From: an uncultured Prevotella sp.
GTDB lineage: Bacteria; Bacteroidota; Bacteroidia; Bacteroidales; Bacteroidaceae
DNA: 64,000 nucleotides
Reading direction: 5' to 3'
NCBI GenBank assembly: GCA_944320355.1
Contig: CALUHC010000009.1
Span: 1-64,000, forward strand
The notes below the pieces were generated by a model. That model did no database searches and was not told where the DNA came from. It was given only the letters and a program-made list of their open reading frames with translations. Numbering within the stretch: position 1 is the stretch's first letter; every line of letters begins with the position of its first letter. Shown here in pieces: positions 1,979 to 60,601 of this stretch. The position numbers and the translations under genes are program-made.

Positions 1979-2066
1979 GAAACGTGCCGTTTTGGGCTGC
2001 GAAACGTGCCGTTTCATCGTGCAAAATGTGCCGTTTCACAACCCAAAACGGCACGTTTCGCAACAC
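1979..2066 (+). repeat. 22-bp phased palindrome array 1 (4 units)
   Basis: Four consecutive units start at 1979, 2001, 2023 and 2045, exactly 22 bp apart. Units 1 and 2 begin GAAACGTGCCGTTT, unit 3 AAAATGTGCCGTTT, and unit 4 is the complementary form AAAACGGCACGTTT. The array is preceded by a conserved flank (TTGGCAGTCAATGTGTTGC). Confidence 0.9.
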
Positions 2067-2157
2067 GGGTTTATACGGTATGTCATTTTTGAGGGTTCAA
2101 ATTGATGCTTTTCCGGGTTGGAAGTGTTAAACAGAAGAGTGTTTAACAAAAATTAAC

Positions 2158-2198
2158 GGGGGGGGGGTTAAAATTGTTATATTTATTTTCTACATTTG
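2158..2198 (+). promoter_or_regulatory. Promoter of the tandem SusCD operon, next to a G10 tract
   Basis: A Bacteroidetes-type -7 element TACATTTG lies at 2191-2198. No well-spaced TTG is found at -33. That position instead abuts a run of ten G (2158-2167), flanked by TTAAC and TTAA. Length change in the tract would alter the upstream promoter region; that is inference. Confidence 0.55.
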
Positions 2199-2686
2199 CG
2201 ACAGATTTGTAACAATGCGGCACAGACGGAAGCCAAGGCTGTGCCGCATGATGTAAACCGGGAGCAAGCGAAAATACCGGCAAGACTAAACAAAACATAA
2301 TTTCATAATCTTTGAGACAGCTGGCGGCTGTTCCTTATGGTGGAGGCAGGCTGGCGCAAATGCAACGGGGCCGGAGGGAATGGCCCTGCCACGCAAGCGG
2401 AAGGACGCGCGGAAGCAAGGCGCAAGACCCGGGGCGAGACCAATGACGACCAATAAGCAATATCAATAACTATAAACTGACGAGACTTTATGGGCATTAA
2501 GACAGACAATGGTGGCGCAGCCGCGCTGTGCTTGCGCATGGCGATAGGGCGGTGTCCGCCTGTAGCGGCTTTCCGTGGCGGGTCTGGGCGCGCGCGCGGG
2601 ATGCGCCGTCACCGCAACCCGGCGCCACGGCGGAAGTGAGACACATTATATTTAGAAACATTCTTATTCTTAAATTTACTACTAAT
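2199..2686 (+). promoter_or_regulatory. Long structured 5' leader of the SusCD operon
   Basis: About 480 nt separate the putative -7 element from the first SusC ATG. Near its start a perfect 10-bp stem, TGCGGCACAG (2216-2225) with CTGTGCCGCA (2239-2248), closes a 13-nt loop. The rest is GC-rich and purine-rich. An open frame running in from 2528 is the SusC frame read upstream of its real start. No known riboswitch class is recognised. Confidence 0.45.
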
Positions 2687-5600
2687 ATGGCTGACAATAA
2701 GTTACTGAAAAGATGGTGGCTACTGCCTGTCGCCTTGTTGTGCGGATTCCATCCGTCGGGCCTCTCGCCGGCTTTTGCCCAGGCGCAGAGCGTTCAGCGG
2801 CAGGGCATGATAAGCGGGACAGTGGTCGACCAGAATGGCGAGACCGTTATCGGCGCCAGTGTCATCGTCGAGGGTGCCAAGACCACCCAAGGCACAGTTA
2901 CGGACTTCGACGGAAAGTTCTCCCTGAAGGTGGCTCCCGGCACGAAGCTCCGCATCACGTTTGTGGGCTACAAGCCGATGGTGGTCGAGGCCAAGAACGG
3001 CATGAGAGTCACGCTCAATGAGGACTCGAACGTGCTGCAGGGTGTCGAGGTGGTGGCCTACGGCACGCAGAAGAAGGTGACCGTGACCGGCGCCCTGTCC
3101 AGCATCAAGGGCGAGGAGCTGGTGCGCACGCCCGTAAGCTCGGTCAACAACGTGCTGGCCGGACAGCTCTCGGGTGTCACCACGGTGCAATACTCGGGCG
3201 AGCCGGGCTCAGACGCGGCCACAGTGTTCGTGCGCGGGCAGGCCACGTGGGAAGACTCGGCCCCGCTCATCCAGGTGGACGGAGTGGAGCGCTCCATGAG
3301 CGACATAGACCCCAACGAGATTGAGAGCATCACCATTCTGAAAGACGCATCGGCCACGGCTGTGTTCGGTGTGCGCGGAGCCAACGGCGTGGTGCTCATC
3401 ACCACCAAGCGAGGCAAGGAGGGCAAGGCCCGCATAAGCGGCACGACCTCGTTCAGCCTCCTCATGCCCACCAAGATGGTGGAGCAGGCTTCGAGCTACG
3501 AGTACGCCCTCTTCCACAACCAGATGCGCGAGAACGACGGGCAGACCCCGCAGTTCACTGACGAGGTGCTGCTCGAGAAGTTCCGCACAGGCTCGGACCC
3601 CATCCGATTCCCGAGCACTGAGTGGGCCGACTACATAATGAAAGACGCCACGCTGCAGACGCAGCACAACGTCAACATAAGCGGAGGCAGCGAGAAGGTG
3701 CGCTACTTCATCTCCGCAGGCGTGTTCACCCAGGGCGGACTCTTCCAGCAGTTCGCGCAGGATTACAACAACAGCTACTCCTACAACCGCTTCAACTACC
3801 GCGCCAACCTCGACATGGACGTGACAAAGACCACGACCATATCGCTCAACATAGCCGGAAACGCGAGCAACGCCAACAAGCCCTACACCGGCCAGGGGGC
3901 CTCGGGCATGATCATGGCGGCCTATCAGGCCACCCCGTTCTCAAGCCCCGGCATCGTGGACGGCAGGCTCATCAGCACCACAACCGACTACACCGACGTG
4001 CAGCTGCCGTTCGTCGGCGGCTCGGGCATGACCTACTACGGCGCCGGGTTCATGAAGACGCAGATCAACAAGCTGCAGATGGACCTGCAGCTGGAGCAGA
4101 AGCTCGACATGATAACCAAGGGTCTGTCGTTCAAGATCAAAGGCTCGTACAACAGCCAGTACAACGTGAGCAAGAACGGCTCGGCCGCCGTGGCCACATA
4201 CAACCCCGTATTGCAGGACGACGGCACGCTGGCCTACAGGAAGATAGGCAGCGACGAGCCTGTGAGCTACAGCACCGACACCGGCAAGGCACGCGACTGG
4301 TATGCCGAGGCCTCGCTCAACTACAGCCGCTCCTTCGGCCTGCACACCGTGGGCGCGCTGCTGCTCTACAACCAGAGCAAGCAGTTCTACTACTCCTCAA
4401 CGGAATATCCCGACCTGGCCCGAGGCTACGTGGGCCTGGTGGGCCGCGTCACATACGACTGGAACAACCGCTACCTGGCCGAGTTCAACATCGGTTACAA
4501 CGGCTCTGAGAACTTTGCGCCCGAGAACCGCTTCGGCACTTTCCCCGCCGGATCTATCGGTTGGGTGATGAGCGAGGAGAAGTTCTTCAAGCCGCTCAGC
4601 AAGGTGGTGAGCTTCTTCAAGCTGCGTGCGTCGTGGGGTCTCGTGGGCAACGACAAGATAGGAGGCTCCCGCTTCATGTACCTCGACGACCCGTACACCG
4701 TCAACAACGAGGCCATCTGGGCGCGCGGAGGCCGCGGCTATTCCTTCGGCATAGAGAACAGCACCATCTATCCCGGCGCGTTCGAGGCCTCGCGCAACAA
4801 CCCCGAGGTGACCTGGGAGAAGGCCTTCAAGCAGGACTACGGCTTCGACCTCAACCTGTTTGACAACCGCCTGCGCACCGTCTTCGACTACTACAAGGAG
4901 CACCGCACCAACATCCTGCTGCGCGATGGCACGGCCCCGGGCATCATCGGCTTCAATGTGCCTTATACCAATATGGGCGAAGTGGACAGCTGGGGATGGG
5001 AAGTGTCGCTGAAGTGGCAAGACGAGATAGGCAAGAACTTCCGCTACTGGGTCGGCCTGAACCTCTCTTACAACCAGAACGAGATAAAGGAAATGAAGGA
5101 AGCGCCGCTCAACAACGAGTACCAGTATCAGAAAGGCCACCGCATAGGCTCGCGCAGCCAGTACCTCTTCTGGCGCTACTACTATGACGGAGCCGAGGCC
5201 GACTACGAGCGCGAGTTCGGACGGCCGTTCCCGCAGCAGATTATCAACAACGACAACCTGCAGCCCGGCGATGCTATTTACGTTGACCTTGACGGCAACG
5301 GGGTGATAAACGAGAACGATATGAGCCGCGACTACGGCTACACCGACGACCCGGAATACATAGCCGGCCTGAACCTTGGCTTCCAGTGGAAGGACCTCAG
5401 TGTCAATATGCAGTTCACCGGAGCGTGGAATGTGTCGCGCTATCTCTCCGACGTGTTCATGCGCCCATTCCAGGGACGTACCACAACCGACCAGGGCGGA
5501 CTGCTCAAGTATCACCTCGACCACACATGGACTGTCGACAACCCGTCGCAGGATGCCGAATATCCGCGCGCAACGCAGACAAACGGCTCGCAGAACTACG

Positions 5601-5845
5601 CCTCCTCAACACTCTATGAGAAGGACGCGAAGTACTTGCGCCTGAAGACTCTCGAAGTGGCTTACGACTTCCACTTCCCGTTCATGAAGAGCATAGGCCT
5701 CAACCAGCTGCAGTTGGCCTTGAGCGGCTATAACCTCTTCACCATCACGCCTTATATCTGGGGAGACCCCGAGACGAGGGCAAGTGCGTCGCCATCTTAT
5801 CCGCTGCAGCGCACATACACTGTTTCTCTTAAATTGGGATTCTAA
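2687..5845 (+). CDS. SusC-family TonB-linked outer membrane transporter (RagA type), pair 1
   Basis: Imports large nutrients, usually glycans or peptides, through the outer membrane with its SusD lid and TonB energy. The ATG at 2687 is chosen because it gives a clean signal peptide (residues 1-33, ending AFA), while the frame upstream of it reads as non-secretory GC-rich sequence. A carboxypeptidase-D-like regulatory domain spans about 41-112 (ISGTVVDQNGETVIGASV...). It is followed by a TonB-box-like segment (GVEVVAYGTQKK, ~119-130) and the plug (~130-245, with ILKDASATAVFGVRGANGV). The 22-strand barrel runs to the terminal SLKLGF. Length is 1052 residues, normal for the family. It lies 37 nt upstream of its SusD. 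The substrate cannot be read from the sequence and no glycosidase is adjacent. Confidence 0.96.
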   Translation: MADNKLLKRWWLLPVALLCGFHPSGLSPAFAQAQSVQRQGMISGTVVDQNGETVIGASVIVEGAKTTQGTVTDFDGKFSLKVAPGTKLRITFVGYKPMVVEAKNGMRVTLNEDSNVLQGVEVVAYGTQKKVTVTGALSSIKGEELVRTPVSSVNNVLAGQLSGVTTVQYSGEPGSDAATVFVRGQATWEDSAPLIQVDGVERSMSDIDPNEIESITILKDASATAVFGVRGANGVVLITTKRGKEGKARISGTTSFSLLMPTKMVEQASSYEYALFHNQMRENDGQTPQFTDEVLLEKFRTGSDPIRFPSTEWADYIMKDATLQTQHNVNISGGSEKVRYFISAGVFTQGGLFQQFAQDYNNSYSYNRFNYRANLDMDVTKTTTISLNIAGNASNANKPYTGQGASGMIMAAYQATPFSSPGIVDGRLISTTTDYTDVQLPFVGGSGMTYYGAGFMKTQINKLQMDLQLEQKLDMITKGLSFKIKGSYNSQYNVSKNGSAAVATYNPVLQDDGTLAYRKIGSDEPVSYSTDTGKARDWYAEASLNYSRSFGLHTVGALLLYNQSKQFYYSSTEYPDLARGYVGLVGRVTYDWNNRYLAEFNIGYNGSENFAPENRFGTFPAGSIGWVMSEEKFFKPLSKVVSFFKLRASWGLVGNDKIGGSRFMYLDDPYTVNNEAIWARGGRGYSFGIENSTIYPGAFEASRNNPEVTWEKAFKQDYGFDLNLFDNRLRTVFDYYKEHRTNILLRDGTAPGIIGFNVPYTNMGEVDSWGWEVSLKWQDEIGKNFRYWVGLNLSYNQNEIKEMKEAPLNNEYQYQKGHRIGSRSQYLFWRYYYDGAEADYEREFGRPFPQQIINNDNLQPGDAIYVDLDGNGVINENDMSRDYGYTDDPEYIAGLNLGFQWKDLSVNMQFTGAWNVSRYLSDVFMRPFQGRTTTDQGGLLKYHLDHTWTVDNPSQDAEYPRATQTNGSQNYASSTLYEKDAKYLRLKTLEVAYDFHFPFMKSIGLNQLQLALSGYNLFTITPYIWGDPETRASASPSYPLQRTYTVSLKLGF

Positions 5846-5882
5846 TCACAGAAGGACAACTTTATATAAACAGACTACGATT

Positions 5883-7898
5883 ATGAAAATACATAAGTTA
5901 TTACTGGGCGGACTTGTGGTTGCGGCAGCTGTTGCGGGCGTAAGCTCGTGTACAGACGAGATTGCCGTGGGTAGCGAGTTCCTCGACAAGGCTCCGAGCG
6001 GCAGCACTACAAAGGACTCTGTGTTCCACAACGCAGAGTACACGCGCCAGTTCGTGGCCAGCATATATTCGCTGCAATATTACGGCATACCTTACCGCAG
6101 CTCCAACGACGCCCCGCTGTCTGCAAGCTACTGGAAGGGCAAGCTCGACGCGCTCACAGACATCTATCACCTCAACTTCAGCGGCTCGATGATCTATGGC
6201 TCATATTATACAGCTTCGCTTACGTCAAGTACCGGCGGCCCTATCTATGGCCTGACTGACGAGAACTTCTGGCAGCTGATACGCGCGGCATATATGTTGA
6301 TGGAAAACATAGGCACCGTGCCAAACATGGAGCAGAGCGAGAAGGACAGGCTCGTGGCTGAGTGCAAGTGTCTCATAGCCTCCACATATTTTAATATGTT
6401 CAAGTGTTATGGCGGACTGCCTATCGTCACAGGCACATACTCAGGCCTCGATGGTTCCTACAACATTCCCCGTGCCTCGGTTGACCGCACCGTCCGCTTT
6501 ATGACTGGCCTGCTCGACGAGGCTGCCGGCGTGCTGCCCTGGGCCTACACAGGCACTGCCGCTCAGAGCGAGACAGGCCGCTGGACAAGTGCTGCGGCCA
6601 TGGCCCTGAAGTGCAAGATACTCCAGTTTGCCGCCTCTCCGCTGTTCAATAGCGAGCAAGCCTACTATGGCGGCTCCACGCCGGCCGAGCAAGACAGCCT
6701 CGTATGGTATGGCGGCTATCGCCAGGACCTTTGGCAGCAGTGTCGCGAAGCCTGCGACCAGTTCTTCACCGCCCTGCAGGCCAACGGCCATTACGAGATG
6801 GTGATGCCAACGGCCAACACGCCTGAGGCCTATCGCTACGCCTTCCGCTATGGCTACGTGAACCAGGCCAGCCCCGAGGTGCTGTACTCTGTGCGCGTGA
6901 CCAACAGCACCCACGACTCCAAGTATCAGGGATATACGCTCATGTACGGGCGCAATGACCGCTACGCTTATACCCCGACGCAGGAGTATGTCGAGATGTT
7001 TCCGTGGCGAGACGGCACTCCGTTCGACTGGAACCGCGACAGCATAGCCGGCCGTCTTGACACAATGTTTGTGAAAGGCGACAGGGTGGAAGGGCTGCAG
7101 GACCGGCAGAACCGCGTGCTCACGCGCGACCCGCGTCTCTATGAGACGGTTTATGTGAACGGCGTTCCGCAACAGACAAACTGGACAGACGGCAATGCCA
7201 CCGGCGACATCTGTGAGAACTGGGTGGGCGGAACGGACGCCGGACAGCAGCCGCTGACCCAGACGGGCTGCTTCGGCTCAGGATATTTCAATAAGAAGTA
7301 TGTCGTAGGCTCGTGCTATGACCGCCAGTTCCCGCAGTGGGATGTCATCCGTATGTCGGATATGTATCTCACATACGCCGAGGCCTTGCTGCAGGCCGAC
7401 AACGATTTCACTGATGCTCTTTATTATATAGACCTCGTCCGCTCGCGTGTAGGCCTGAGAGGACTTGCGGAGTGCAACCCCGACAAGAACCTGACTTCCG
7501 ACAAGAACGCGCTGATAGAGGAACTGTTGCGCGAACGCGCCTGCGAGCTGGGCTTCGAGAACGAGCGTTACTTCGACCTCATCCGCTACAAGCGGGCCGA
7601 CATCTTCAGCAAGCAGCTGCACGGACTGCGCATCTGGCGTATGCAGACAGACCCCGCAACTGGTGTGCGTGACACCGTGCAGACCATGTGGACCCGGGAT
7701 GATAAGGTGAACACTGCCAACGACCCGACGGCTCCCGGATACTATGAGCCGACGGACTTTGAGTACGAGCGCTTTGCGATAAACGTTCCGGTGAGGGTGT
7801 TCTGGACGCAGGGCTTCGACCCCAAGTGGTATCTTTTCCCATTCCCGCAGACCGAAGTGAACAAGGGCTACGGACTCATCCAGAACCCGGGATGGTGA
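5883..7898 (+). CDS. SusD/RagB-family nutrient-binding lipoprotein, pair 1
   Basis: Surface lipoprotein that binds the ligand and caps the SusC channel. The ATG at 5883 gives a type II signal peptide with lipobox VSSC (Cys23), and the charged TDE after the cysteine fits lipoprotein surface export in this phylum. The 671-residue protein has the N-terminal SusD TPR region (~60-260) and the C-terminal RagB/SusD region, with the family ending FPIPQTE-like (FPFPQTEVNKGYGLIQNPGW). The open frame upstream of 5883 overlaps SusC and is not needed. It forms an operon with the preceding SusC. Confidence 0.95.
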   Translation: MKIHKLLLGGLVVAAAVAGVSSCTDEIAVGSEFLDKAPSGSTTKDSVFHNAEYTRQFVASIYSLQYYGIPYRSSNDAPLSASYWKGKLDALTDIYHLNFSGSMIYGSYYTASLTSSTGGPIYGLTDENFWQLIRAAYMLMENIGTVPNMEQSEKDRLVAECKCLIASTYFNMFKCYGGLPIVTGTYSGLDGSYNIPRASVDRTVRFMTGLLDEAAGVLPWAYTGTAAQSETGRWTSAAAMALKCKILQFAASPLFNSEQAYYGGSTPAEQDSLVWYGGYRQDLWQQCREACDQFFTALQANGHYEMVMPTANTPEAYRYAFRYGYVNQASPEVLYSVRVTNSTHDSKYQGYTLMYGRNDRYAYTPTQEYVEMFPWRDGTPFDWNRDSIAGRLDTMFVKGDRVEGLQDRQNRVLTRDPRLYETVYVNGVPQQTNWTDGNATGDICENWVGGTDAGQQPLTQTGCFGSGYFNKKYVVGSCYDRQFPQWDVIRMSDMYLTYAEALLQADNDFTDALYYIDLVRSRVGLRGLAECNPDKNLTSDKNALIEELLRERACELGFENERYFDLIRYKRADIFSKQLHGLRIWRMQTDPATGVRDTVQTMWTRDDKVNTANDPTAPGYYEPTDFEYERFAINVPVRVFWTQGFDPKWYLFPFPQTEVNKGYGLIQNPGW

Positions 7899-7957
7899 CC
7901 AAGGCTCTGAAGGACTTATGTGACAACTAACGAAGTTCAATCGAAAAATTGCGTATT

Positions 7958-10825: not shown

Positions 10826-10847
10826 CCATTCATTAAACGACAGAATC

Positions 10848-12596: not shown

Positions 12597-12647
12597 CAGT
12601 AGGTGAAGACGAGTTTCTTTATCATACCAATCATCAAATGACAGTGT

Positions 12648-12682
12648 GGAGGGGATGCCTGTTGAAGGTGTCCCCTCTTTTT
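12648..12682 (+). terminator. Rho-independent terminator of the SusCD operon
   Basis: The stem GGAGGGGA (12648-12655) pairs with TCCCCTC (12671-12677) and is followed by a T-rich tail (TTTTT). Confidence 0.8.
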
Positions 12683-12689
12683 GCGGACA

Positions 12690-12927
12690 GATGTCGGCTG
12701 TCTGCCCGTGCTTGCAAATATGCAATCAGAGATGGCCCGTAGGGCGCCGTCCTCGCCTATGTGCCGTTTCGCCTTTCAATGCGGCGCGTTTTGCGCCGCG
12801 AAACGTGCCGTTCCGTCGTGCGGAATGCGCCGTTTCGCAGCCTGAAACGGCACATATCGCAAGGCGCTGACAGTCAGCTGCTTGGCCAAGGCAAGCCTTG
12901 TCGCCGCTTTTAACATAAAAATGTTAA
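12690..12927 (-). repeat. 22-bp phased palindrome array 2 (5 units) with both conserved flanks
   Basis: Units start at 12756, 12778, 12800, 12822 and 12844, exactly 22 bp apart (for example GAAACGTGCCGTTC, GGAATGCGCCGTTT, GAAACGGCACATAT). On the left is the conserved distal motif TTGCAAATATGCAA (12712-12725). On the right is the leader-like flank ending in TTAACATAAAAATGTTAA (12910-12927), whose last TTAA is also the first base group of the adjoining MITE-1 copy. Confidence 0.85.
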
Positions 12928-13124
12928 CCCGAATCGGTCGTTGGAGGCCAAAGCGATTCCTTGCTGTTGTCGTGCAGATTGTCTGTCGCCTTTGTCGAAG
13001 GCGTAGCGGGCTGCGTCGGGACAAAGCGGCAGACAAGATGCCGCTGGCAGGGCGAAAGCGCTTGGAAAGCCTGAAAAGTAACAAAAATATATTCCTGGCG
13101 GTCTAATGACCGATTTGGGATAAA
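12924..13124 (+). mobile_element. MITE-1 copy, 201 bp, non-autonomous element with inverted ends
   Basis: It starts TTAACCCGAATCGGTCGTTGGA and ends GTCTAATGACCGATTTGGGA, which are inverted relative to each other. The interior is nearly identical to 43154-43354 (GGCGTAGCGGGCTGCGTCGG, CAGACAAGATGCCGCTGGCA, AACAAAAATATATTCCTGGC). It encodes no transposase. It is one of two copies here that show an intact TATATTTTT site (reverse strand), the site occupied in the copy at 59470-59868. Confidence 0.85.
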
Positions 13125-15900: not shown

Positions 15901-15966
15901 CGGAGCGCACGTTTCGCAACGCGATGCGCGCCGTGTTGTGATGTGGAATGGCATATATACGCAAGC
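15901..15966. repeat. Degenerate 22-bp phased array (3 units)
   Basis: Units begin at 15902 (GGAGCGCACGTTTCGC), 15923 (GATGCGCGCCGTGTTG) and 15945 (GGAATGGCATATATACGC), with spacing 21 and 22 bp. The distal flank ATTGCATATTGGCGTATA lies downstream, as at the arrays at 44 kb and 12.7 kb. The remainder of the 15770-16081 gap shows no gene. Confidence 0.6.
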
Positions 15967-22184: not shown

Positions 22185-22802
22185 ATGAAGAGAATTCTTA
22201 CCGCAATCCTTTTTGTTGTGGCCCTGATGACGGCTGGCGTGGCTGACGCGCAGATAAAGTTCGGACTCAAGGGAGGCCTCAACGTGACTAACATGAGCTT
22301 CAGCAGGGACGTGATAGACAAGTCCAACCAAACCGGATTCTTTGTCGGTCCTACCGTCAAAATCGGCATTCCCCTCGCAGGGCTTGGAGTTGACGCTGCT
22401 GTGATGTATGACCAGCGCGAGGCAAAGGGAGGCATTGATGGCGACGAGATCAGCGTGAAGCAGCGCAGCATCAACATCCCTATCAACCTGCGTTACAACA
22501 TAGGCTTCAGCAGCCTGGTGGGCGCTTACATAGCTGCCGGCCCGCAGTTTGGCTTTGCTGTAGGCGACAAGAGCTTTAAATGGGATGAGGAAACGAGCTA
22601 CGACATCAGCAACTCCAACTTCAGCATCAATGTGGGCGCGGGCATAACGCTCGTGAGCCACCTCGAAATAGGCTTCACCTACAACATCGCCTGCGGCAAG
22701 ACCGGTGAGGTGAACGTATTGAGTGCTGCTGGCGACACATGGGAGCAGGTGACCAAGGGCCGCGCCAACGCATGGCAGGTGTCGGCGGCATATTACTTCT
22801 AA
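22185..22802 (+). CDS. Small outer membrane beta-barrel protein (porin/PorT-like family)
   Basis: A 205-residue exported protein with signal peptide MKRILTAILFVVALMTAGVADAQ and the outer-membrane-barrel signature directly after it (IKFGLKGGLNVTNMSF). Alternating hydrophobic strands follow (GFFVGPTVKIGIPLAGLGVDAAVMYDQ, SINIPINLRYNIGFSSLVGAYIAAGPQFGF), and it ends in an aromatic residue (WQVSAAYYF), as most BAM substrates do. This matches the outer membrane beta-barrel families annotated as porin family in Bacteroidetes. It follows the type IX operon but has a terminator between, so a role in secretion is not implied. No specific ligand can be deduced. Confidence 0.85.
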   Translation: MKRILTAILFVVALMTAGVADAQIKFGLKGGLNVTNMSFSRDVIDKSNQTGFFVGPTVKIGIPLAGLGVDAAVMYDQREAKGGIDGDEISVKQRSINIPINLRYNIGFSSLVGAYIAAGPQFGFAVGDKSFKWDEETSYDISNSNFSINVGAGITLVSHLEIGFTYNIACGKTGEVNVLSAAGDTWEQVTKGRANAWQVSAAYYF

Positions 22803-22911
22803 TGCGCGGCCGGCTGGTGTGAAGGCCGGTGTGGCAGGCCACGGGCTATGTGCTCGTGAATGCTTGGTGGGCGCACAACGTGCATCCGCCGTGCGTCGGC
22901 AAAGGCATATT

Positions 22912-22969
22912 ACGGTGGCAACCATCGTGGCGGCAGCACGCTGCCCCACGGCGGTTGCCACCGTTTTTT
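22912..22969 (+). terminator. Long hairpin terminator after the beta-barrel gene
   Basis: ACGGTGGCAACC (22912-22923) pairs perfectly with GGTTGCCACCGT (22953-22964). An inner stem GGCAG/CTGCC lies inside, and six T follow. Confidence 0.85.
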
Positions 22970-23040
22970 GTCAAGATTTTTACCGCTTGAGACACCGCTC
23001 GCGCCCTTGCCGCTAACTCGTTGGTAATCAGTGGGGTTGC

Positions 23041-23128
23041 GAAACGTGCCGTTTTGGCTTGCGAAACGGCACGTTTTATGGGCTGGAATAGGCCGTTTTG
23101 CATGGTGAAACGGCACGTCTTGCAGAGC
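23041..23128 (+). repeat. 22-bp phased palindrome array 3 (4 units)
   Basis: Units start at 23041, 23063, 23086 and 23107 (spacing 22, 23, 21; total 88 = 4 x 22). Forms alternate: GAAACGTGCCGTTT, GAAACGGCACGTTT, GAATAGGCCGTTTT, GAAACGGCACGTCT. The preceding flank TTGGTAATCAGTGGGGTTGC resembles those of arrays 1 and 5. Confidence 0.85.
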
Positions 23129-23267
23129 CGGGCGGCAAGGGCTCTTTTTCAAAGGGCGTTTTGTCAATGTTTTTTACCGCTTCCGCCGGTCTGCTCAGTG
23201 GGGCCGGGCGAGGGCAAAAAGCCAGTCTGCGGCAAAATAAAGCCGCCGCAGGCGCGTTATAAATACA

Positions 23268-24299
23268 ATGAGAGTGACGACCATTATCATCTGCTTGCTT
23301 GCCTGCCGGGCAGCAAATGCCGCCGCGCAGCGGGCCGACAGCACCGGCGTGGCTGGTGGCAGCGTGAGCAAGGTGGAGCAGGTGCGCCGTGCCATAGACA
23401 GTGTGCTCGACTTGCGCGACAGCCGCCGCAAGGTGCGCGTGGACACAGCCTACCTGCGCCGCGCGCCCGAACGGCTGCGCCTGAAGCTGCGGCTCAACTG
23501 CTCTGGCTCCGACATCACCACCAAGGGCACGCAGGGTGGCTCGCCGTTTGAGTCGGCCTTGGAGACCGACCTCAGGACAACGCTGAGCATAGGCGCGTCG
23601 TATCGCGGGCTGTCGGTGGGCGTTGCGCTCAACCCGGCCAAGCTGTCGGGCAAGGACAATGACTATGAGCTGAACCTCACGGCGTATGGCAACCGCCTCG
23701 GAGGCGAGGTGGTATTCCTGTCGTCGAAGACCTACAAGGGCACGGTTTCCGCCGGGGCGGTCGAGACGGAGGTCGCCGCCGGGGCCGTGAGCCAGCAGAT
23801 GCTCACGCTTAACGCCTACTATGCCTTCAGCGGCAGGCGCTTTTCGTTCCCCGCCGCGTTCACCCAGTCGTGGCTGCAACGGCGCAGCCACGGCAGCTTC
23901 ATGCTCGGGCTGACGTTCATGGGCGGCCGCCTGAGATATGATTATGGCAACGAGAGCCTGCCCGGCGAGACGACGCTCGGCATCATCTGCGCCGGGGGCG
24001 GTGCTGGCTATGGCTATAACTGGGTGACAAAAAGAGGGTGGTTGCTGCATCTTTCAACGCTGCCCGAGCTCGTGGTGTTCAGCCGCTGCCGGCTGACAGC
24101 GGCAGGCGGGCGCGAGAAGATGCCTTACAGGTTTCCCAATATAATGGCTGTGGGGCGCATGGCCGTGGTGCGCCATTTCGACAAATACTTCGCGGGGTTC
24201 ACCGCCGTGGTCAACACCTCATACATAGGCGACAGCGACCGGCTGTCGGTGGGCACCACCAAGTGGCGCGCAAGGATGTTCGTGGGCATCAAGCTATGA
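23268..24299 (+). CDS. DUF4421 family protein
   Basis: A 343-residue exported protein of the Bacteroidetes DUF4421 family, function unknown, probably outer-membrane beta-barrel. Signal peptide MRVTTIIICLLACRAANAAAQ. Family traits include the segment DTAYLRRAPERLRLKLRLNCSGSD and the conserved AFSGRRFSFPAAFTQSWLQRRSHGSFMLGLTF around residues 185-215. The C-terminus ends in a strand with amphipathic alternation (WRARMFVGIKL). The stop overlaps by 6 bp the stop of the convergent metallophosphoesterase gene, and there is no room for a terminator between them. Confidence 0.8.
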   Translation: MRVTTIIICLLACRAANAAAQRADSTGVAGGSVSKVEQVRRAIDSVLDLRDSRRKVRVDTAYLRRAPERLRLKLRLNCSGSDITTKGTQGGSPFESALETDLRTTLSIGASYRGLSVGVALNPAKLSGKDNDYELNLTAYGNRLGGEVVFLSSKTYKGTVSAGAVETEVAAGAVSQQMLTLNAYYAFSGRRFSFPAAFTQSWLQRRSHGSFMLGLTFMGGRLRYDYGNESLPGETTLGIICAGGGAGYGYNWVTKRGWLLHLSTLPELVVFSRCRLTAAGGREKMPYRFPNIMAVGRMAVVRHFDKYFAGFTAVVNTSYIGDSDRLSVGTTKWRARMFVGIKL

Positions 24300-29935: not shown

Positions 29936-30023
29936 GGAACGGGGCATATCGCATGGCGAAACGGCACATATCGCGCTGCGAAACGACCCGTTTGGCGTGG
30001 CGAAACGGGCCGTTTCGCAGCGC
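29936..30023. repeat. 22-bp phased palindrome array 4 (4 units)
   Basis: Units begin at 29936 (GGAACGGGGCATAT), 29958 (GAAACGGCACATAT), 29980 (GAAACGACCCGTTT) and 30002 (GAAACGGGCCGTTT), exactly 22 bp apart. Confidence 0.85.
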
Positions 30024-38090: not shown

Positions 38091-38555
38091 TGCTGTGCGT
38101 TGTAGGTTTTTGTTTGGGTTGGGGCTGCCTGTCGTGTGAGGCCTTCGGACATACCGGCTTGCTGCTTCCCCGATGCGGCTTGCCCTCTACAAAGGTAGTG
38201 CTTTTCTGCCATACAGGCGTGCGTATGGCCGTCATAATTGATGCAAACGATTGCAGGCCGGGCTTGCGGTTTGCGTCATGTGGCGAGTGGAAGGCGGCTT
38301 CTGCCAAGGCGTTGTGCGGCCCTTGTGTAACCGTCTGGCTGTCAATGCGTTGCGGAACGTGCCGTTTTGCGTTGCGAAACGGCACGTTTCATCGTGCGAA
38401 ACGGGCCGTTTTGTAAGCCAAAACGACCCGTTTCGCACGATGGCATGATGTGTGCCGCTTTGCGGCGGCGTTTATGGCCCGGCGTGAGTGGTGTGCCGGT
38501 GCCGTTCGGCCGCGCCTGTCCTGCTCCGCTTTGTTGCCGCTTCAGTGTCTGCGTG
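38091..38555. other. Intergenic gap: promoter and 22-bp array, no gene
   Basis: Holds the -7 element for the VOC gene (TACCTTTG on the minus strand, 38190-38197; -33 is poor) and array 5 (38354-38441). No protein-like frame. Confidence 0.6.
38354..38441 (+). repeat. 22-bp phased palindrome array 5 (4 units)
   Basis: Units at 38354 (GGAACGTGCCGTTT), 38376 (GAAACGGCACGTTT), 38398 (GAAACGGGCCGTTT) and 38420 (AAAACGACCCGTTT), exactly 22 bp apart. The preceding flank CTGGCTGTCAATGCGTTGC is shared with array 1. Confidence 0.9.
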
Positions 38556-43135: not shown

Positions 43136-43143
43136 TACCTTTG
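43136..43143 (+). promoter_or_regulatory. -7 promoter element separated from the acetyltransferase by MITE-1
   Basis: TACCTTTG at 43136-43143. A 201-bp MITE-1 copy begins 11 bp downstream and ends just before the start codon. Confidence 0.5.
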
Positions 43144-43153
43144 CACCGGAATC

Positions 43154-43354
43154 TTAAACCCAAATCGGTCATTAGAGTCCAAAGTGATTTCGTCTTGCCG
43201 GCGTGCAGATTGGCAGTCGCCTTTGTCAAAGGCGTAGCGGGCTACGTCGAGACAAAGCGGCAGACAAGATGCCGCTGGCAGGGCGAAAGCACTTGGAAAG
43301 CCTGAAAAGTAACAAAAATATATTCCTGGCGGTCTAATGACCGATTGGGGTTAA
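43154..43354 (+). mobile_element. MITE-1 copy, 201 bp, in the 5' leader of the acetyltransferase gene
   Basis: Ends TTAAACCCAAATCGGTCATT and TCTAATGACCGATTGGGGTT are inverted. The interior is closely similar to 12924-13124. Its right end lies 8 bp before the ATG at 43363. It keeps the intact AAAAATATA site occupied in the 59470-59868 copy. Confidence 0.88.
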
Positions 43355-43962: not shown

Positions 43963-44593
43963 TATGGTTAACCGCAAACCATTAGACAGCCGGGGATGTG
44001 CCTTGGTTGCTTTTCCCCGGCGGTCATGTGGTCTCTAAGTTTGGCTTACAGCTTTGGCCCGATGCGTCCCGACCAATTTGGGCCTAAGCCACAGATTCCG
44101 TTAAGTCTATTTTGATGCACCTGCTTGTTTTCATGGATATCCGCCAACTTCCCGTTCACGCAGCTGCCGCCAGCAGCCATTTGTTTCCGTTGACATTTTT
44201 ATGTTAAGGGTAGCGATATTGTGTGTGTTGGCTAAACGTCTGATGGTCAGTAGATTGCAAAACGTATCGTACCGCTTTGCGAAACGGCACGTTTCGGGCG
44301 ATGAAACAGCACATCTTGCCTCGCGAAACGTGCTTTGTTGGAATACAGAACGGCGCATACGCGAATCCAAGCCTTTCTTAATTGCATATTTGTATTTATT
44401 GGAAAAATGCCGGTATGCTTTCTCGTCTGTTCGAGTTTGCATACACAAAGAAACACCGTGGCATACATACAGATACAATATTGAGCGTCGAAGTAATTGT
44501 GTGCTGACTGCCTGGCGCGCGACCCGGCGATATTAGCTGATTGCGTAAAATGGTCGATTGCAAGCGTTTAAATGAAAAAAAATGCCTAAAAAG
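43963..44593. other. Intergenic gap with array 6 and degenerate repeat ends, no gene
   Basis: Contains a MITE-2-like end (ATGGATATCCGCCAACTT, about 44133), the TGACATTTTTATGTTAA motif (44191-44207) and the array at 44259-44346. Nothing protein-like is present. Confidence 0.6.
44190..44395 (+). repeat. 22-bp phased palindrome array 6 (4 units) with both conserved flanks
   Basis: Units at 44259 (AAAACGTATCGTAC), 44281 (GAAACGGCACGTTT), 44303 (GAAACAGCACATCT) and 44325 (GAAACGTGCTTTGT), exactly 22 bp apart. Left flank TGACATTTTTATGTTAA (44191-44207) and right flank TTGCATATTTG (44382-44392) match, in inverse orientation, those of array 2. Confidence 0.85.
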
Positions 44594-46280: not shown

Positions 46281-46354
46281 GCCTCTTTAGCTCAGTTGGC
46301 CAGAGCACGTGATTTGTAATCTCGGGGTCGTTGGTTCGAATCCGACAAGAGGCT
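46281..46354 (+). tRNA. tRNA-Thr (TGT)
   Basis: Cloverleaf with acceptor GCCTCTT/AAGAGGC, D arm AGCTCAGTTGG, anticodon TGT (GATTTGTAATC) and T arm GGTTCGAATCC. CCA is not encoded. Confidence 0.95.
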
Positions 46355-46406
46355 CGGCCGAAGGGTATGGCAGCAAGAGTGCTGCGCCAGGCAAAAGAAA
46401 TTTCAA

Positions 46407-46489
46407 GGGTGGTTACCAGAGTGGCCAAATGGGGCAGACTGTAAATCTGCTGTCTTTCGACTTCGGTGGTTCGAATCCATCACCACCCA
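46407..46489 (+). tRNA. tRNA-Tyr (GTA)
   Basis: 83-nt class II tRNA with acceptor GGGTGGT/ACCACCC, anticodon GTA (GACTGTAAATC), a long variable arm and T loop GGTTCGAATCC. Confidence 0.95.
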
Positions 46490-46505
46490 CTCCCATGAAA
46501 GTTTT

Positions 46506-46578
46506 GCGGAAATAGCTCAGTTGATAGAGCACTAGCCTTCCAAGCTGGGGGTCGCGGGTTTGAGCCCCGTTTTCCGCT
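46506..46578 (+). tRNA. tRNA-Gly (TCC)
   Basis: Acceptor GCGGAAA/TTTCCGC, anticodon TCC (GCCTTCCAAGC), T arm CGGGTTTGAGCCCCG. Confidence 0.94.
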
Positions 46579-46585
46579 CTTTCTT

Positions 46586-46657
<72 letters not shown>

Positions 46658-46714
46658 CAAACAAAACATTCATTAATCAGAATTATTTGTAAAACAAAAT
46701 AAAGAAGAAAAGCT

Positions 46715-47902
46715 ATGGCTAAAGAGACATTCGTTCGTACCAAACCGCATGTAAACATTGGTACTATTGGTCACGTAGACCATGGTAAGACTACTCTTAC
46801 CGCTGCCATCACCACTGTTCTGGCAAAGAAGGGTCTTTCTGAGGTTAAGTCTTTCGACCAGATTGACAATGCCCCGGAGGAGAAGGAGCGTGGTATCACT
46901 ATCAACACCGCTCACGTTGAGTATGAGACCGCTACCCGTCACTACGCTCACGTGGACTGCCCGGGACACGCTGACTATGTGAAGAACATGGTTACTGGTG
47001 CTGCTCAGATGGATGGTGCCATTATCGTGGTCGCTGCTACCGATGGTCCTATGCCCCAGACTCGTGAGCACGTTCTGCTCGCCCGTCAGGTGAACGTTCC
47101 CCGCTTGGTGGTGTTCCTGAACAAGTGCGATATGGTAGAGGACGAGGAAATGCTCGAACTCGTTGAGATGGAAATGCGCGAGCTCCTCGATCAGTACGAG
47201 TATGACGGCGATAACACTCCTATCATCCGTGGTTCTGCACTCGGTGCGCTGAACGGCGTAGAGAAGTGGGAGGAGAAGGTCATGGAGCTGATGGACGCTG
47301 TGGACAACTGGATACCTCTGCCTCCGCGTGATCTTGACAAGCCTTTCCTGATGCCTGTTGAGGACGTGTTCTCAATCACTGGCCGTGGAACTGTGGCTAC
47401 TGGCCGTATCGAGACTGGCCGCGTGAAGGTTGGCGACGAAGTAGAGCTGCTCGGCCTTGGCGAAGACAAGAAGTCTGTGGTTACCGGCGTTGAGATGTTC
47501 CGCAAGATTCTTGACGAGGGTGAAGCTGGCGACAACGTAGGTCTGCTGCTCCGCGGTATTGACAAGAAGGAGATCAAGCGTGGTATGGTGCTCTGCCATC
47601 CGGGACAGATCAAGCCTTACAAGAAGTTCAAGGCTCAGATCTATGTTCTGAAGAAAGAGGAAGGTGGACGCCACACTCCGTTCGGAAACAAGTATCGTCC
47701 TCAGTTCTATCTCCGCACCATGGACTGCACGGGTGAAATCACTCTGCCCGAAGGCGTTGAGATGGTGATGCCGGGTGACAACGTGACCATCACCGTAGAG
47801 CTCATCTACGCTGTGGCTCTGAACGTAGGTCTGCGCTTCGCCATCCGCGAGGGAGGCCGCACGGTAGGTGCCGGTCAGATCACTGAGATCATCGAGGACT
47901 AA
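46715..47902 (+). CDS. tuf: Translation elongation factor Tu
   Basis: GTPase that delivers aminoacyl-tRNA to the ribosome. 395 residues with G1 GHVDHGKT (18-25), G2 [13 protein letters not shown]3 DCPGHADY, G4 NKCDM and G5 SAL, then domains II and III ending [11 protein letters not shown]. Codon use is strongly biased to GGT/GCT/ATC relative to the surrounding GC-rich genes, as expected for very high expression. Cotranscribed downstream of four tRNA genes; a hairpin follows. Confidence 0.99.
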
Positions 47903-47929
47903 TTGCAATAGTCATACATAAGCACAAAA

Positions 47930-47963
47930 GGTTCCCGCTGGGTCACTGACGGGAACCTATTTT
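47930..47963 (+). terminator. Hairpin between tuf and tRNA-Trp
   Basis: GGTTCCCG (47930-47937) pairs with CGGGAACC (47950-47957), followed by TATTTTA. A partial terminator or processing site. Confidence 0.6.
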
Positions 47964-48039
47964 ACGGGATTAGCTCAGTTGGTAGAGCACCGGTCTCCAA
48001 AACCGGGTGTCGGGAGTTCGAGTCTCTCATCCCGTGCCA
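47964..48039 (+). tRNA. tRNA-Trp (CCA)
   Basis: Acceptor ACGGGAT/ATCCCGT, anticodon CCA (TCTCCAAAA), T arm GGAGTTCGAGTCTC. The 3' CCA is encoded (48037-48039), unlike the other four tRNAs here. Position before secE is conserved in Bacteroidetes. Confidence 0.95.
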
Positions 48040-48246: not shown

Positions 48247-48275
48247 TAAGTTTTTGTATTATCTGATTATCCGAG

Positions 48276-49360: not shown

Positions 49361-49381
49361 CTTATAACTTCAATTAGAACA

Positions 49382-50074: not shown

Positions 50075-50094
50075 CTCGCTAAAAGTTTAGTAAA

Positions 50095-50613: not shown

Positions 50614-50665
50614 ATCAAAAGTCACAAACAAAACATTAAAAAACAATAAAAACATTAGAATAAAA

Positions 50666-51046: not shown

Positions 51047-51069
51047 TAAAGCATACTACAATATTTATT

Positions 51070-51106
51070 GGTTAAGAATCTCTCAGTAGGAGGTTCTTAA
51101 CCTTTT
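51070..51106 (+). terminator. Attenuator between rplL and rpoB
   Basis: GGTTAAGAA (51070-51078) pairs with TTCTTAACC (51094-51102), followed by four T. The usual location for partial termination that lowers rpoBC relative to L7/L12. Confidence 0.75.
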
Positions 51107-51179
51107 GTGTCTTATAAGATACGACATTTCCCGATAGCGGGAACTTGGTAGCTTCCACAATAACGTTCAATCACTTTTT

Positions 51180-54100: not shown

Positions 54101-54992
54101 CCTTGAATATGGCGACGTGCAGATAAGCAACTGGACCGACGATGAGCACACCAACGACCTCATTTCAAAGCTGGTCATCAACTTCATGAAGAAGTACAAG
54201 CTGCTTGATGCCGAGATGAAGCGCAAGAAGTTTGCCATCACCATCGGCGATGAGCTGCCTTCAGGCATTCTGCAGATGGCCAAGGTGTATGTTGCCAAGA
54301 AGCGCAAGATAAGCGTTGGTGACAAACTCGCCGGCCGACATGGCAATAAGGGTATCGTATCGAAGGTGGTGCGCCAGGAGGATATGCCGTTCCTTGAGGA
54401 CGGCCGTCCTGTAGACTTGGTGCTCAACCCGCTGGGTGTGCCCTCGCGTATGAACCTCGGCCAGATATTCGAGGCCATCCTTGGCGCTGCCGGCAAGAAG
54501 CTCGGCGTCAAGTTTGCCACGCCTATCTTCGACGGTGCCAAGCTCGACGACCTCGCCGAGTGGACCGACAAGGCCGGGTTGCCGCGCCTTTGCTCCACAT
54601 ATCTTTACGATGGGGAGACGGGTGAGCGTTTCGACCAGCCTGCCACAGTCGGCATAACCTACTTCCTCAAGCTCGGCCACATGGTGGAGGACAAGATGCA
54701 CGCCCGTTCCATTGGTCCGTACTCGCTCATCACGCAGCAGCCGCTCGGCGGTAAGGCGCAGTTCGGAGGCCAGCGTTTCGGAGAGATGGAGGTCTGGGCC
54801 CTTGAGGCCTTCGGCGCCAGTCATGTGCTGCAGGAGATACTTACCATCAAGTCTGACGACGTGGTGGGGCGCAGCAAGGCATACGAAGCCATCGTCAAGG
54901 GTGAGCCAATGCCTACGCCGGGCATCCCCGAGTCGCTCAATGTATTGCTGCATGAGCTTAAAGGTCTTGGGCTTAGTGTGACCCTCGATTAA
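51180..54992 (+). CDS. rpoB: DNA-directed RNA polymerase subunit beta
   Basis: 1270-residue catalytic subunit. Recognisable segments include the rifampicin-pocket region [94 protein letters not shown] and the C-terminal [13 protein letters not shown]. In the rifampicin region the residues normally associated with sensitivity look wild type (Q, D, H, S positions conserved). ATG 51180 follows the attenuator; rpoC begins 40 nt after its stop. Confidence 0.99.
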
Positions 54993-55032
54993 TTAAGGAA
55001 CTCTTTACATAACAACATACAACAACGTAAAT

Positions 55033-59412
<4,380 letters not shown>

Positions 59413-59432
59413 GCATTTCATGCAATACAGAC

Positions 59433-59466
59433 AAAAAGCCGCGTGGCCATCGCCACGCGGCTTTTT
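59433..59466 (+). terminator. rpoBC operon terminator
   Basis: AAAAAGCCGCGTGGC and GCCACGCGGCTTTTT pair perfectly around a 4-nt loop, with T5 tail and A5 lead. Confidence 0.95.
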
Positions 59467-59469
59467 GTG

Positions 59470-59868
59470 TTAAACCCAAATCGGTCATTAGACCGCCAGG
59501 AATATATTTTTATGAATATCCGCATTCTGCCAAATGCGAGGAGTTAGCAGGAGTTAACGGGAGTTATTACTCGCTGCGCTCGTTCATGGAGTCAGCGGAC
59601 ATCACCCACTAAAGCTATCGTCCGCTAACTCCGGGCGACCGTAAGGAAGCCTAACTCCCGTTAACTCCATATAACTATTTGGCAACTTGCGGACATTCAT
59701 TATATTTTTGTTACTTTTCAGGCTTTCCAAGTACTTTTGCCCTGCCAGCGGCATCTTGTCTGCCGCTTTGTCTCGACGTAGCCCGCTACGCCTTCTATAA
59801 AGGCGACTGCCAATCTGCACGCCGGCAAGACGAAATCACTTTGGACTCTAATGACCGATTTGGGTTAA
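59470..59868 (-). mobile_element. MITE-1 copy interrupted by MITE-2 (nested insertion)
   Basis: Outer ends TTAAACCCAAATCGGTCATT and ACTCTAATGACCGATTTGGG are inverted. Removing the 189-bp insert and one 9-bp duplicate leaves 201 bp, the same length as the 12924 copy. Orientation is opposite to the copies at 12924 and 43154. Confidence 0.93.
59512..59700. mobile_element. MITE-2 copy (189 bp) with 9-bp target site duplication
   Basis: Inverted ends ATGAATATCCGCATTCTGCC and GGCAACTTGCGGACATTCAT, flanked on both sides by TATATTTTT (59503-59511 and 59701-59709). The interior holds several GTTAAC-type words (CAGGAGTTAACGGGAG, AACTCCCGTTAACTCC). No coding capacity for a transposase. Confidence 0.93.
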
Positions 59869-60491
59869 AGAAAAGTAATTCTTGTCCGATATTCTTGCCG
59901 TTTGTTGAAATTTTAATACATTTATGGAACTTGAAACTTTTAACCTCCCCAACCGGGATAATAAACACAAGGGGTTATATATACGAAGAAAGCGTGGGAG
60001 TTCTTGCCGTCACTCGTCCCACGTTCTGAGGCTCTCGCATTGCCCGGTACAGTTGAACGAGCAACACAGAAGCCCACGCCAGATATGAATGCAATCCAAC
60101 TCTGCCGATGCGGACGAGGCCACACCGACCGAGAGGACATGAACATACACATCCCGTAGGGCATCACTGTTGCCATGTTCCTGACTGTACCTGTAATTTG
60201 CGAGATTTCAGAACGTCAAGCACAAAGCGCAGTAAACGCCTTATCCATATATAGTCTCCCCGCCCGTCTTGCCCACTGCGTGGCTTCTGTTTGGGGATAA
60301 CATCGCAAAGATAGTGATTTATTTCTTAAGTAGATGCAGAAAGTCGTGTTTTTTTCTTTTCTATAGTTCTTTTGCGAGAACTTTGCCGACATGAGTTCAG
60401 CAGGTAGATGCATGGATTTTTTATGGATATCCGCAATCTGCCCATAGTTGCAAATATACAACTAAAAACGGGCGCTATTTCCTTGATTTTC
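59869..60491. other. Intergenic gap after the nested element
   Basis: No recognised gene. It contains a stop-interrupted open frame (59965-60300), a perfect -7 element on the minus strand (TATCTTTG, 60306-60313) without an obvious gene, and a MITE-2-like end (ATGGATATCCGCAATCTGCC, about 60423). Confidence 0.5.
59965..60300 (+). pseudogene. Possible gene remnant, open frame with one internal TAG
   Basis: This frame is open for 64 codons, meets TAG at 60157-60159, then is open for another 46 codons to TAA 60298-60300. It includes a protein-like stretch (AWEFLPSLVPRSEALALPG, then LCRCGRGHTDREDMNIHIP). No start codon or family is recognised; it could be chance. Confidence 0.2.
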
Positions 60492-60601
60492 GGTATGTGC
60501 CGTTTCGCATTCCGAAACGTGCCGTTTTGGCTTGCGAAACGACCCGTTTCAGGCTGCAAAACGTGCCGTTTTGGCTTCCAAAACGGCACGTTTTGCAACT
60601 T
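60492..60601. repeat. 22-bp phased palindrome array 7 (5 units)
   Basis: Units at 60492 (GGTATGTGCCGTTT), 60514 (GAAACGTGCCGTTT), 60536 (GAAACGACCCGTTT), 60558 (AAAACGTGCCGTTT) and 60580 (AAAACGGCACGTTT), exactly 22 bp apart. The distal flank GTTGCAAATATACAA lies about 45 bp to the left. The other side continues CTTGTTGAGTATCAG. Confidence 0.92.

What the first reader, a model, noticed from the sequence alone, without database searches (positions are those of the whole stretch)
1979..60601. Eight dispersed intergenic arrays of a 22-bp phased palindromic unit
At 1979-2066, 12756-12865, 15901-15966, 23041-23128, 29936-30023, 38354-38441, 44259-44346 and 60492-60601 there are 3 to 5 consecutive units. 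Each unit opens with an imperfect palindrome of the form GAAACG-NN-CCGTTT (or its relative GAAACGGCACGTTT) and the spacing is almost always exactly 22 bp. Where one unit deviates (23 then 21 bp at 23063-23106) the total is restored to a multiple of 22. Units within an array are not identical, so the period rather than the sequence seems to be under selection. About two helical turns per unit would put every palindrome on the same DNA face, as expected for cooperative protein binding. Alternatively the transcript would form a chain of small hairpins. All eight sit in gaps, never in genes. I know of no described element with this architecture.
Basis: seen in the sequence. Interest (0 to 1): 0.85.

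Follow-up and report, generated by a model that had tools for sequence, protein, structure and literature searches.

The report
Evenly spaced palindrome lattices in Prevotella
The genome (a Prevotella) carries a family of short intergenic DNA elements built from palindromes exactly 22 bases apart and set at remarkably even distances along the chromosome; relatives keep the spacing rule but spell the palindrome differently, which suggests a chromosome-organising site or an unusually self-avoiding mobile element.

Summary
The arrays are real. In 454 kb of this genome 65 arrays were found; 212 of 220 unit steps are exactly 22 bp. The host is a Prevotella. The arrays are cores of elements of about 200 bp: a flank palindrome (M1), four to five units, and end motifs; in P. 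lacticifex M1, U1-U5 and the right end motif share one 22-bp lattice. Relatives keep the lattice with other unit "dialects". Arrays are intergenic (64 of 65 here), unrelated to gene direction, and evenly spaced: median gap 6.4 kb, CV 0.47 against 0.79 for random intergenic sites (0 of 3000); likewise in G004. Between two sister species 6 of 7 arrays keep their place, with no indel in the lattice. Tests for RNA structure are mixed, mostly negative; A-tracts are helically phased. Best reading: a DNA-level architectural element, probably protein-bound and curved, at regular chromosome positions. Close rival: a mobile family with target exclusion. It is not BrickBuilt and lacks two REP/RAYT hallmarks.

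The parts
1961..1978 (+). M1 flank palindrome of element 1
1979..2066 (+). array, 4 units of 22 bp
12712..12725 (.). end palindrome TTGCAAATATGCAA of element 2 (subtype A1)
12756..12865 (-). array, 5 units; oriented on - by M1
12859..12876 (-). M1 of element 2 (overlaps the last spacer)
12910..12927 (.). end palindrome TTAACAT..ATGTTAA of element 2
15901..15966 (.). degenerate array, 3 weak units; not recovered by the trained scan
23022..23040 (+). M1 of element 4
23041..23128 (+). array, 4 units at exact 22-bp steps
29936..30023 (.). array, 4 units, second subtype without a clear M1; by eye the orthologous gap holds an array in G004, G062, G063 and G064 and none in G060, G061, G065 and G066
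38336..38353 (+). M1 of element 6
38354..38441 (+). array, 4 units
44241..44258 (+). M1 of element 7
44259..44368 (+). array, 4 units plus a weaker fifth
60448..60462 (.). end palindrome TTGCAAATATACAAC of element 8
60492..60601 (-). array, 5 units; oriented on - by M1
60595..60612 (-). M1 of element 8

Best explanation
A family of DNA-level architectural sites. Each element is about 200 bp: a specialised palindrome (M1, with some likeness to an IHF-type site), four to five unit palindromes and an end motif on one 22-bp lattice. Shown: the lattice and its exactness, the intergenic position, shared places between two sister species, species-specific unit dialects, helically phased A-tracts in four genomes, and even chromosomal spacing. 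Inferred: a dimeric DNA-binding protein that co-evolves with the unit dialect sits on each palindrome; with HU/IHF-type bending and intrinsic curvature it forms a compact nucleoprotein node; nodes set about 5-20 kb apart act as regular anchors of supercoil loops or topological domains, and the spacing is kept because losing or doubling a node disturbs loop size.
For: Even spacing: G000 CV 0.47 vs null 0.79+-0.09, 0 of 3000, with 3 of 59 gaps under half the median vs 17.9 expected; G004 CV 0.51 vs 0.86+-0.12, 0 of 3000; G062 P=0.02. With all gaps >=30 bp as slots, 0 of 400 simulations reach the observed CV in G000 or G004. P. lacticifex contig 1 counts are under-dispersed, Fano 0.30, p=0.002. 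In G000 a plain exclusion zone does not give the excess of 5-7.5 kb gaps (P 0.000, 0.002, 0.014 at 3.0, 3.5, 4.0 kb). Exact lattice with M1 and the right end motif in register; no lattice indels between orthologues. Place kept at 6 of 7 G062 arrays and 6 of 6 G063 arrays in shared synteny. Not tied to gene direction: of 28 oriented arrays between co-directional genes 11 point with and 17 against them, p 0.34. A-tract phase vector at 10.5 bp per turn 4.2-5.5 vs 1.7-2.0 in shuffles and 1.9-2.3 in other intergenic DNA. HU/IHF-family genes exist in G000.
Against: No protein, binding or contact data. P. lacticifex contig 3 is not significantly regular by CV (0.80 vs 0.90, P=0.35), and short gaps in G062 are not significantly few (4 vs 6.1, P=0.16). 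Gaps as short as 1.8 and 2.4 kb occur in G000. Elements are gained and lost between species. M1 strictly matches the recalled IHF consensus in only 4 of 44, 12 of 50 and 3 of 27 elements and in none of the window. The G065 dialect lacks AAA/TTT arms, so A-tract curvature is not universal. Unit arms do not evolve more slowly than spacers between G062 and G063 (0.146 vs 0.113). The spacing null rests on home-made gene calls.
Confidence: 0.42

Rival explanations
1. A family of non-autonomous mobile elements (MITE- or REPIN-like) that avoid inserting near an existing copy (target exclusion or immunity). Even spacing follows from exclusion, intergenic position from purifying selection, and dialects from coevolution with a transposase.
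For: Presence/absence differences at orthologous gaps; high copy number; several subtypes with different ends; an exclusion zone of about 3-3.5 kb reproduces the CV in G000, and about 3 kb fits G004 fully; some P. lacticifex copies share longer flanking homology.
Against: Places are kept at 6 of 7 arrays between G062 and G063. Most copies in a genome are alike only at the motifs. No terminal inverted repeats were seen: the P. lacticifex ends are direct repeats, and above the threshold used they occur only at arrays in 396 kb. No Y1 transposase in G000 (genome about 80% complete; other transposase types were not searched). Exclusion alone does not give the excess of 5-7.5 kb gaps in G000.
Confidence: 0.33
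2. RNA-level elements: tandem hairpins in transcripts that terminate transcription or protect mRNA 3' ends.
For: Arrays lie closer to gene 3' ends (median 175 bp) than to 5' ends (380 bp) in G000. Native G000 arrays fold more stably than unit-swapped ones (mean MFE -43.6 vs -41.4, z -2.4, 5 of 100). U1:U2 covary in G000 and G004. T-runs follow some arrays.
Against: 12 of 64 G000 arrays with two called neighbours lie between divergent genes. M1 orientation does not follow gene direction. No significant strand difference in fold energy (p 0.15). G-U is not favoured over A-C, and no unit-unit covariation is seen in P. lacticifex. It does not explain the even spacing.
Confidence: 0.12
3. A largely neutral repeat family kept alike by mutation bias (quasi-palindrome template switching, gene conversion, recombination between arrays), with spacing shaped by past recombination.
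For: U1:U2 complementarity without G-U preference is what template-switch correction would leave; some G065/G000 synteny breaks fall at arrays.
Against: No indels in orthologous lattices against many in flanks; arrays diverge less than flanks (0.11-0.15 vs 0.24, the latter an upper estimate); genus-wide retention of 22 bp.
Confidence: 0.08

Closest known systems
REP/BIME elements of enterobacteria and pseudomonads, incl. IHF-interacting BIME-1 and gyrase-binding BIME-2 (PMC2817692, passages seen)
   Same: High-copy extragenic palindromic units, clustered, in both orientations, discussed as protein-binding and chromosome-organising; an IHF-interacting part in some.
   Different: No GTAG-type head, no Y1 transposase found in G000, a strict 22-bp lattice with mostly fixed unit number, species dialects, even spacing.
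BrickBuilt MITE of Porphyromonas gingivalis (PMC4596501, abstract and passages seen)
   Same: Bacteroidales intergenic tandem short repeat with leader and tail.
   Different: 23-nt minisatellite, 19 copies, TIRs like those of IS5-family elements; here 22 bp, degenerate palindromes, hundreds of copies (extrapolated), BrickBuilt TIR absent from the window.
DNA uptake sequences (USS/DUS) of Pasteurellaceae and Neisseriaceae (recalled; only a search listing seen)
   Same: High copy number and species-level dialects; even spacing is recalled, not read.
   Different: Short single sites, not 200-bp phased arrays.
Plasmid iterons and Tn7/Mu transposase end sites (recalled)
   Same: About 22-bp sites repeated in helical register, sometimes with IHF/HU.

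Membership tests
REP/BIME (RAYT-associated) | GTAG-type tetranucleotide at the head of each palindrome | tested here: not met
   Unit weight matrix GAAACGnnnCGTTTCGnnnnGC; REP heads read in PMC2817692 passages
REP/BIME (RAYT-associated) | Cognate RAYT (Y1 transposase) in the genome | tested here: not met
   PF01797: 0 matches in G000; controls ring in 5 of 14; genome about 80% complete
REP/BIME (RAYT-associated) | Extragenic, high copy number | tested here: met
   64 of 65 arrays in intergenic gaps >=220 bp
REP/BIME (RAYT-associated) | Binding of IHF, gyrase or Pol I | not testable with these tools
   M1 only resembles an IHF consensus
BrickBuilt MITE | 23-nt tandem repeat | tested here: not met
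   212 of 220 steps are 22 bp, none 23
BrickBuilt MITE | Terminal inverted repeat GAGACCTTTGCA | tested here: not met
   0 matches at <=1 mismatch in the window
MITE in general | Terminal inverted repeats and target-site duplication | tested here: inconclusive
   P. lacticifex ends are direct repeats; ends of other subtypes not resolved; no strain pair close enough to show an empty site was at hand
CRISPR array | Near-identical repeats separated by unique spacers of similar length to the repeat | tested here: not met
   Units differ and the spacer is 7 bp
Structured RNA family in Rfam | Covariance-model match | tested here: not met
   Only tRNAs in the window at gathering cut-off

The most novel reading that the evidence does not exclude
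Prevotella chromosomes carry an evenly spaced, genome-wide grid of nucleoprotein nodes. Each node is a 22-bp-pitch palindrome lattice read by a rapidly evolving, species-specific DNA-binding protein together with an IHF/HU-type bender, and the grid sets the size of supercoil or loop domains.
Probability: 0.32. Interest if true: 0.95.

Novelty: new variant of a known kind. Interest (0 to 1): 0.8.

Why it matters
What sets loop and domain size in a bacterial chromosome is open, and I know of few chromosome-wide sites with regular spacing (recalled, not searched exhaustively). Here is a dense, regularly spaced set of sites in an abundant rumen and gut genus, with natural experiments built in: species dialects, spacing that differs from about 5.5 to 19 kb between species, and orthologous gaps with and without the element. 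Protein pull-down, contact maps and deletion of single nodes would test the idea directly. If the mobile-element rival is right, it would be a repeat family with strong copy-to-copy exclusion, also unusual.

Tried and rejected
BrickBuilt as identity: rejected on period, copy number and TIR. RAYT/REP: no Y1 transposase found. Rfam: only tRNAs at gathering cut-off. RNA structure: swap control, strand comparison and covariation tests give mixed or negative results. Bacteroidetes-type promoter in the end motifs: considered from a recalled consensus by eye only, not supported. Replichore-oriented placement: hinted at by one listing, but strands are mixed in P. lacticifex. M1 as a strict IHF site: weak. 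Of the 80 listed loci of the two-unit pattern, 66 are titled Prevotella, 1 Prevotellaceae, 2 Marseilla and 11 other taxa; 9 of those 11 show only one or two paired units and were set aside, but a Treponema MAG (L121) has at least six units at 22 bp and a Spirochaetes MAG (L149) an array with steps of 22 and 23 bp, unexplained. The reversed-sequence control is not a valid null for palindromes and is not used; the reversed pattern is not a clean null either. A 7-bp block shuffle stood in for a dinucleotide shuffle. A word-vocabulary effect holds in G000, G060 and G117 but not in G062.

Literature: the searches gave no listed paper whose title or abstract describes these arrays in Prevotella; only open-licence PMC papers are held, so absence is not proof. 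PMC4596501 was seen as outline, abstract and passages; PMC5771137, PMC12306157 and PMC2817692 as passages; none was read whole.
Full report
1. The observation. Reading the eight places shows units of the form GAAACG-NNN-CGTTTC plus a 7-base spacer, at exact 22-bp steps in seven of them; 15901-15966 is a weak, degenerate case. The claimed 23/21 deviation at 23063-23106 does not exist. All eight lie between called genes. In 454 kb of the genome (window plus 20 stretches, 18% of the assembly) an iterated weight matrix finds 89 hits groups, 24 of them single units; the other 65 are arrays of two or more units, 35 of four and 23 of five. Steps are 22 bp in 212 of 220 cases, 32 in six, 29 in one and 33 in one. 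Genome-wide, the unit pattern at <=1 mismatch gives 365 forward and 365 reverse hits against 22 and 22 for the reversed pattern. Scaling 65 arrays in 454 kb gives about 355 per genome (inference).

2. The host. In ten of these genomes the pattern at <=3 mismatches stands above its reversed control in eight (from 512 vs 49 in G060 to 65 vs 16 in G068), little in G065 (58 vs 34) and not in G069 (87 vs 81).

3. Anatomy. A flank palindrome M1 (near TGATNATCANTGNGTTRC) allowed 44 of 65 arrays to be oriented, 43 of the 44 at one distance (within 1 bp) from the array; 21 could not be oriented. Several end types occur in G000, among them TTAACAT..ATGTTAA with TTGCATATTTGCAA, and a T-rich end; a further subtype lacks a clear M1. 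In P. lacticifex 50 hits (43 scoring above 125; a few low-scoring ones are other elements read backwards) share one plan: TGTAAAnATAATTCA, about 33 bp, M1, five units, TGTAAAGATATTTCA. The centres of M1, U1 to U5 and the right end motif lie on one 22-bp lattice; the left end motif is off by about 4 bp (the lattice reading is mine from the printed consensus). U1 and U5 of P. lacticifex are complementary at consensus level. Above thresholds set at the lower quartile of known elements, the end motifs were found only at arrays in 396 kb, while M1-like sites also occur elsewhere (18 sites against 15 at arrays).

4. Dialects. Other Prevotella keep the lattice with different units: AAAGGCnGCCTTT (G004), units such as AATATAGGCCATATT in four arrays of G065, AAAACnATAGGTTTT, AAAACCTACGCTTTT and AAAAGCGGCTGTTTT (G117, 11 arrays), and AAAAGCTATGCTTTT-like units in the few arrays read from G201 and G012. 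A spelling-free lattice pattern (four AAA-7-TTT units at 22 bp, <=3 mismatches) passes 'forward >=20 and at least 3x the reversed count' in 47 of 299 same-genus genomes, the own included (hand count); in 13 of 299 the reversed form passes the mirror rule and many others have both, so the reversed pattern is not a clean null (it also catches a second phase of a lattice and A+T-rich DNA). In 247 genomes of the order, besides G000, one same-family genome (G367, 25 vs 1) passes and none outside the family; one outside (G513) has 0 forward and 109 reversed (hand count). M1 itself has at least one hit in 255 of 299 same-genus genomes with a near-zero control, but mostly only a handful per genome. 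Within a genome unit cores tend to come from a small vocabulary: in G000 the top 7-mer occurs 85 times in 260 units against 49 expected under independent columns, in G060 16 of 52 against 10, in G004 22 of 212 against 19; in G062 there is no such excess (10 of 72 against 13). In G117 four words make 39 of 44 units.

5. Position. Arrays are intergenic: 64 of 65 (G000), 49 of 53 (G004), 18 of 18 (G062) and 13 of 13 (P. lacticifex contig 3) lie in gaps of at least 220 bp. They occur between co-directional, convergent and divergent genes, and M1 orientation does not follow gene direction (11 with, 17 against, p 0.34). In G000 they lie nearer to 3' ends (median 175 bp) than to 5' ends (380 bp), as expected if promoters are avoided.

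6. Even spacing. In G000 59 gaps have median 6.4 kb (range 1.8 to 21.7) and CV 0.47; random choice among intergenic gaps >=220 bp gives 0.79+-0.09 (0 of 3000 as low) and 17.9 gaps under half the median against 3 seen. G004: 51 gaps, median 5.5 kb, CV 0.51 vs 0.86+-0.12 (0 of 3000), 7 short gaps vs 17.3. G062: 17 gaps, CV 0.56 vs 0.85 (P 0.02), short gaps 4 vs 6.1 (P 0.16). P. lacticifex contig 3: 12 gaps, CV 0.80 vs 0.90 (P 0.35), but no gap below 11.2 kb and 0 short gaps vs 3.2 (P 0.01). P. lacticifex contig 1, 20 stretches of 20 kb: 24 arrays, Fano 0.30, p 0.002. With all gaps >=30 bp as slots, none of 400 simulations without exclusion reached the observed CV in G000 or G004; an exclusion of 3-3.5 kb in G000 and about 3 kb in G004 reproduces the CV. 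In G000 the share of gaps at 5-7.5 kb (0.56) exceeds what exclusion of 3.0, 3.5 or 4.0 kb gives (P 0.000, 0.002, 0.014); in G004 it does not (0.35 against 0.33 at 3 kb, P 0.38). So spacing is exclusion-like in two genomes and more regular than that in one. Gene calls are home-made, and most contigs are partial.

7. Evolution. G062 and G063 are sister species (syntenic blocks 84-99% identical). In about 65 kb of shared synteny G062 has seven arrays and G063 six; all six of G063 lie at the place of a G062 array (four listed directly by the script, two read from its block coordinates and aligned). Two of the six pairs are nearly identical and add little. Over the six pairs divergence is 0.146 in arms, 0.125 in centres, 0.113 in spacers, 0.188 within 80 bp and 0.242 beyond; the outer flanks are hard to align, so the last value is an upper estimate. 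No gap opens in 792 lattice columns, against 28 in 3567 flank columns. Among more distant species elements come and go (read by eye): the gap around window 29936 has an array in G000, G004, G062, G063 and G064 and none in G060, G061, G065 and G066; the gap around 23041 has an array in G000, two or three non-consensus units in G062 and G064, and in G061 and G063 no array but another inverted repeat.

8. DNA or RNA? Native arrays of G000 fold better than unit-swapped ones (z -2.4, 5 of 100), with no significant strand preference (p 0.15). Unit-unit covariation: U1:U2 z 3.6 and U3:U4 z 2.1 in G000, U1:U2 z 5.6 in G004, where some of the 27 oriented arrays look misoriented, and no positive signal above z 1.9 in 37 non-redundant P. 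lacticifex arrays. Within-unit pairing is mostly at or below expectation (z as low as -3.0), with exceptions for M1 of P. lacticifex (z 2.9) and U1 of G004 (z 2.5). The rise in Watson-Crick pairs takes G-U and A-C down alike, which speaks against selection on a transcript. Template-switch mutation could also make U1:U2 complementary. A-tracts (AAA/TTT runs) are helically phased: the phase vector at 10.5 bp per turn is 4.77, 4.22, 4.47 and 5.49 in G000, G062, G004 and G060 against 1.7-2.0 in shuffles and 1.9-2.3 in other intergenic DNA, and peaks at 11.0. This follows from the lattice itself and predicts curvature only by a simple tract model; the G065 dialect lacks AAA/TTT arms.

9. Partners. 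G000 has three HU/IHF-family matches over the cut-off and no Y1 transposase. M1 matches a recalled IHF consensus strictly in 4 of 44 (G000), 12 of 50 (P. lacticifex) and 3 of 27 (G004) elements, far above shuffles but in a minority, and M1 was partly chosen by a pattern that overlaps this consensus. In the window no M1 matches strictly. The protein that reads the units is unknown and was not searched for.

10. Conclusion. The strongest facts are the exact lattice, the dialects and the even spacing. The closest known kind is the REP/BIME class of extragenic palindromic elements; it may work like them but fails two of their defining features tested here, so it is not filed as a member.

Noticed in passing
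window 1453-1642, 12924-13119, 43137-43352, 59749-59872; also L031, L032, L036, L039, L040, L042, L050 and G063: A second dispersed family of about 200 bp (containing CCCAAATCGGTCGTTAGAG-like sequence); its G063 copy matches these places at 75-88% identity.
   Followed up: no
L121 117-241 (Treponema MAG), L149 1832-2000 (Spirochaetes MAG): Arrays of GAAACG-type palindromes outside Bacteroidales: at least six units at 22 bp in L121, steps of 22 and 23 bp in L149. Chance, convergence or relation is unknown.
   Followed up: partly
L052 around 2574, 12234 and 12470; L055 18285; L056 4934 (G004): Another tandem repeat with an 11/22-bp step (GACAAGCAGACGAGC-like) in G004, once next to an array.
   Followed up: no
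window 1124-2655, 12598, 22800-23442, 44573: Several breaks of synteny with G065 fall at arrays, as if arrays recombine with each other; other breaks do not.
   Followed up: partly
L076, L077, L125, L160, L161, L169 (P. lacticifex): Some P. lacticifex elements share longer homologous flanks, so a subset may have spread recently as larger modules.
   Followed up: partly
G016 contig 1: All 10 M1-type hits lie on one strand; what follows M1 in the six stretches read there is not an obvious array.
   Followed up: no
window 46281-48039: tRNA cluster Thr, Tyr, Gly, Thr and a separate Trp.
   Followed up: no
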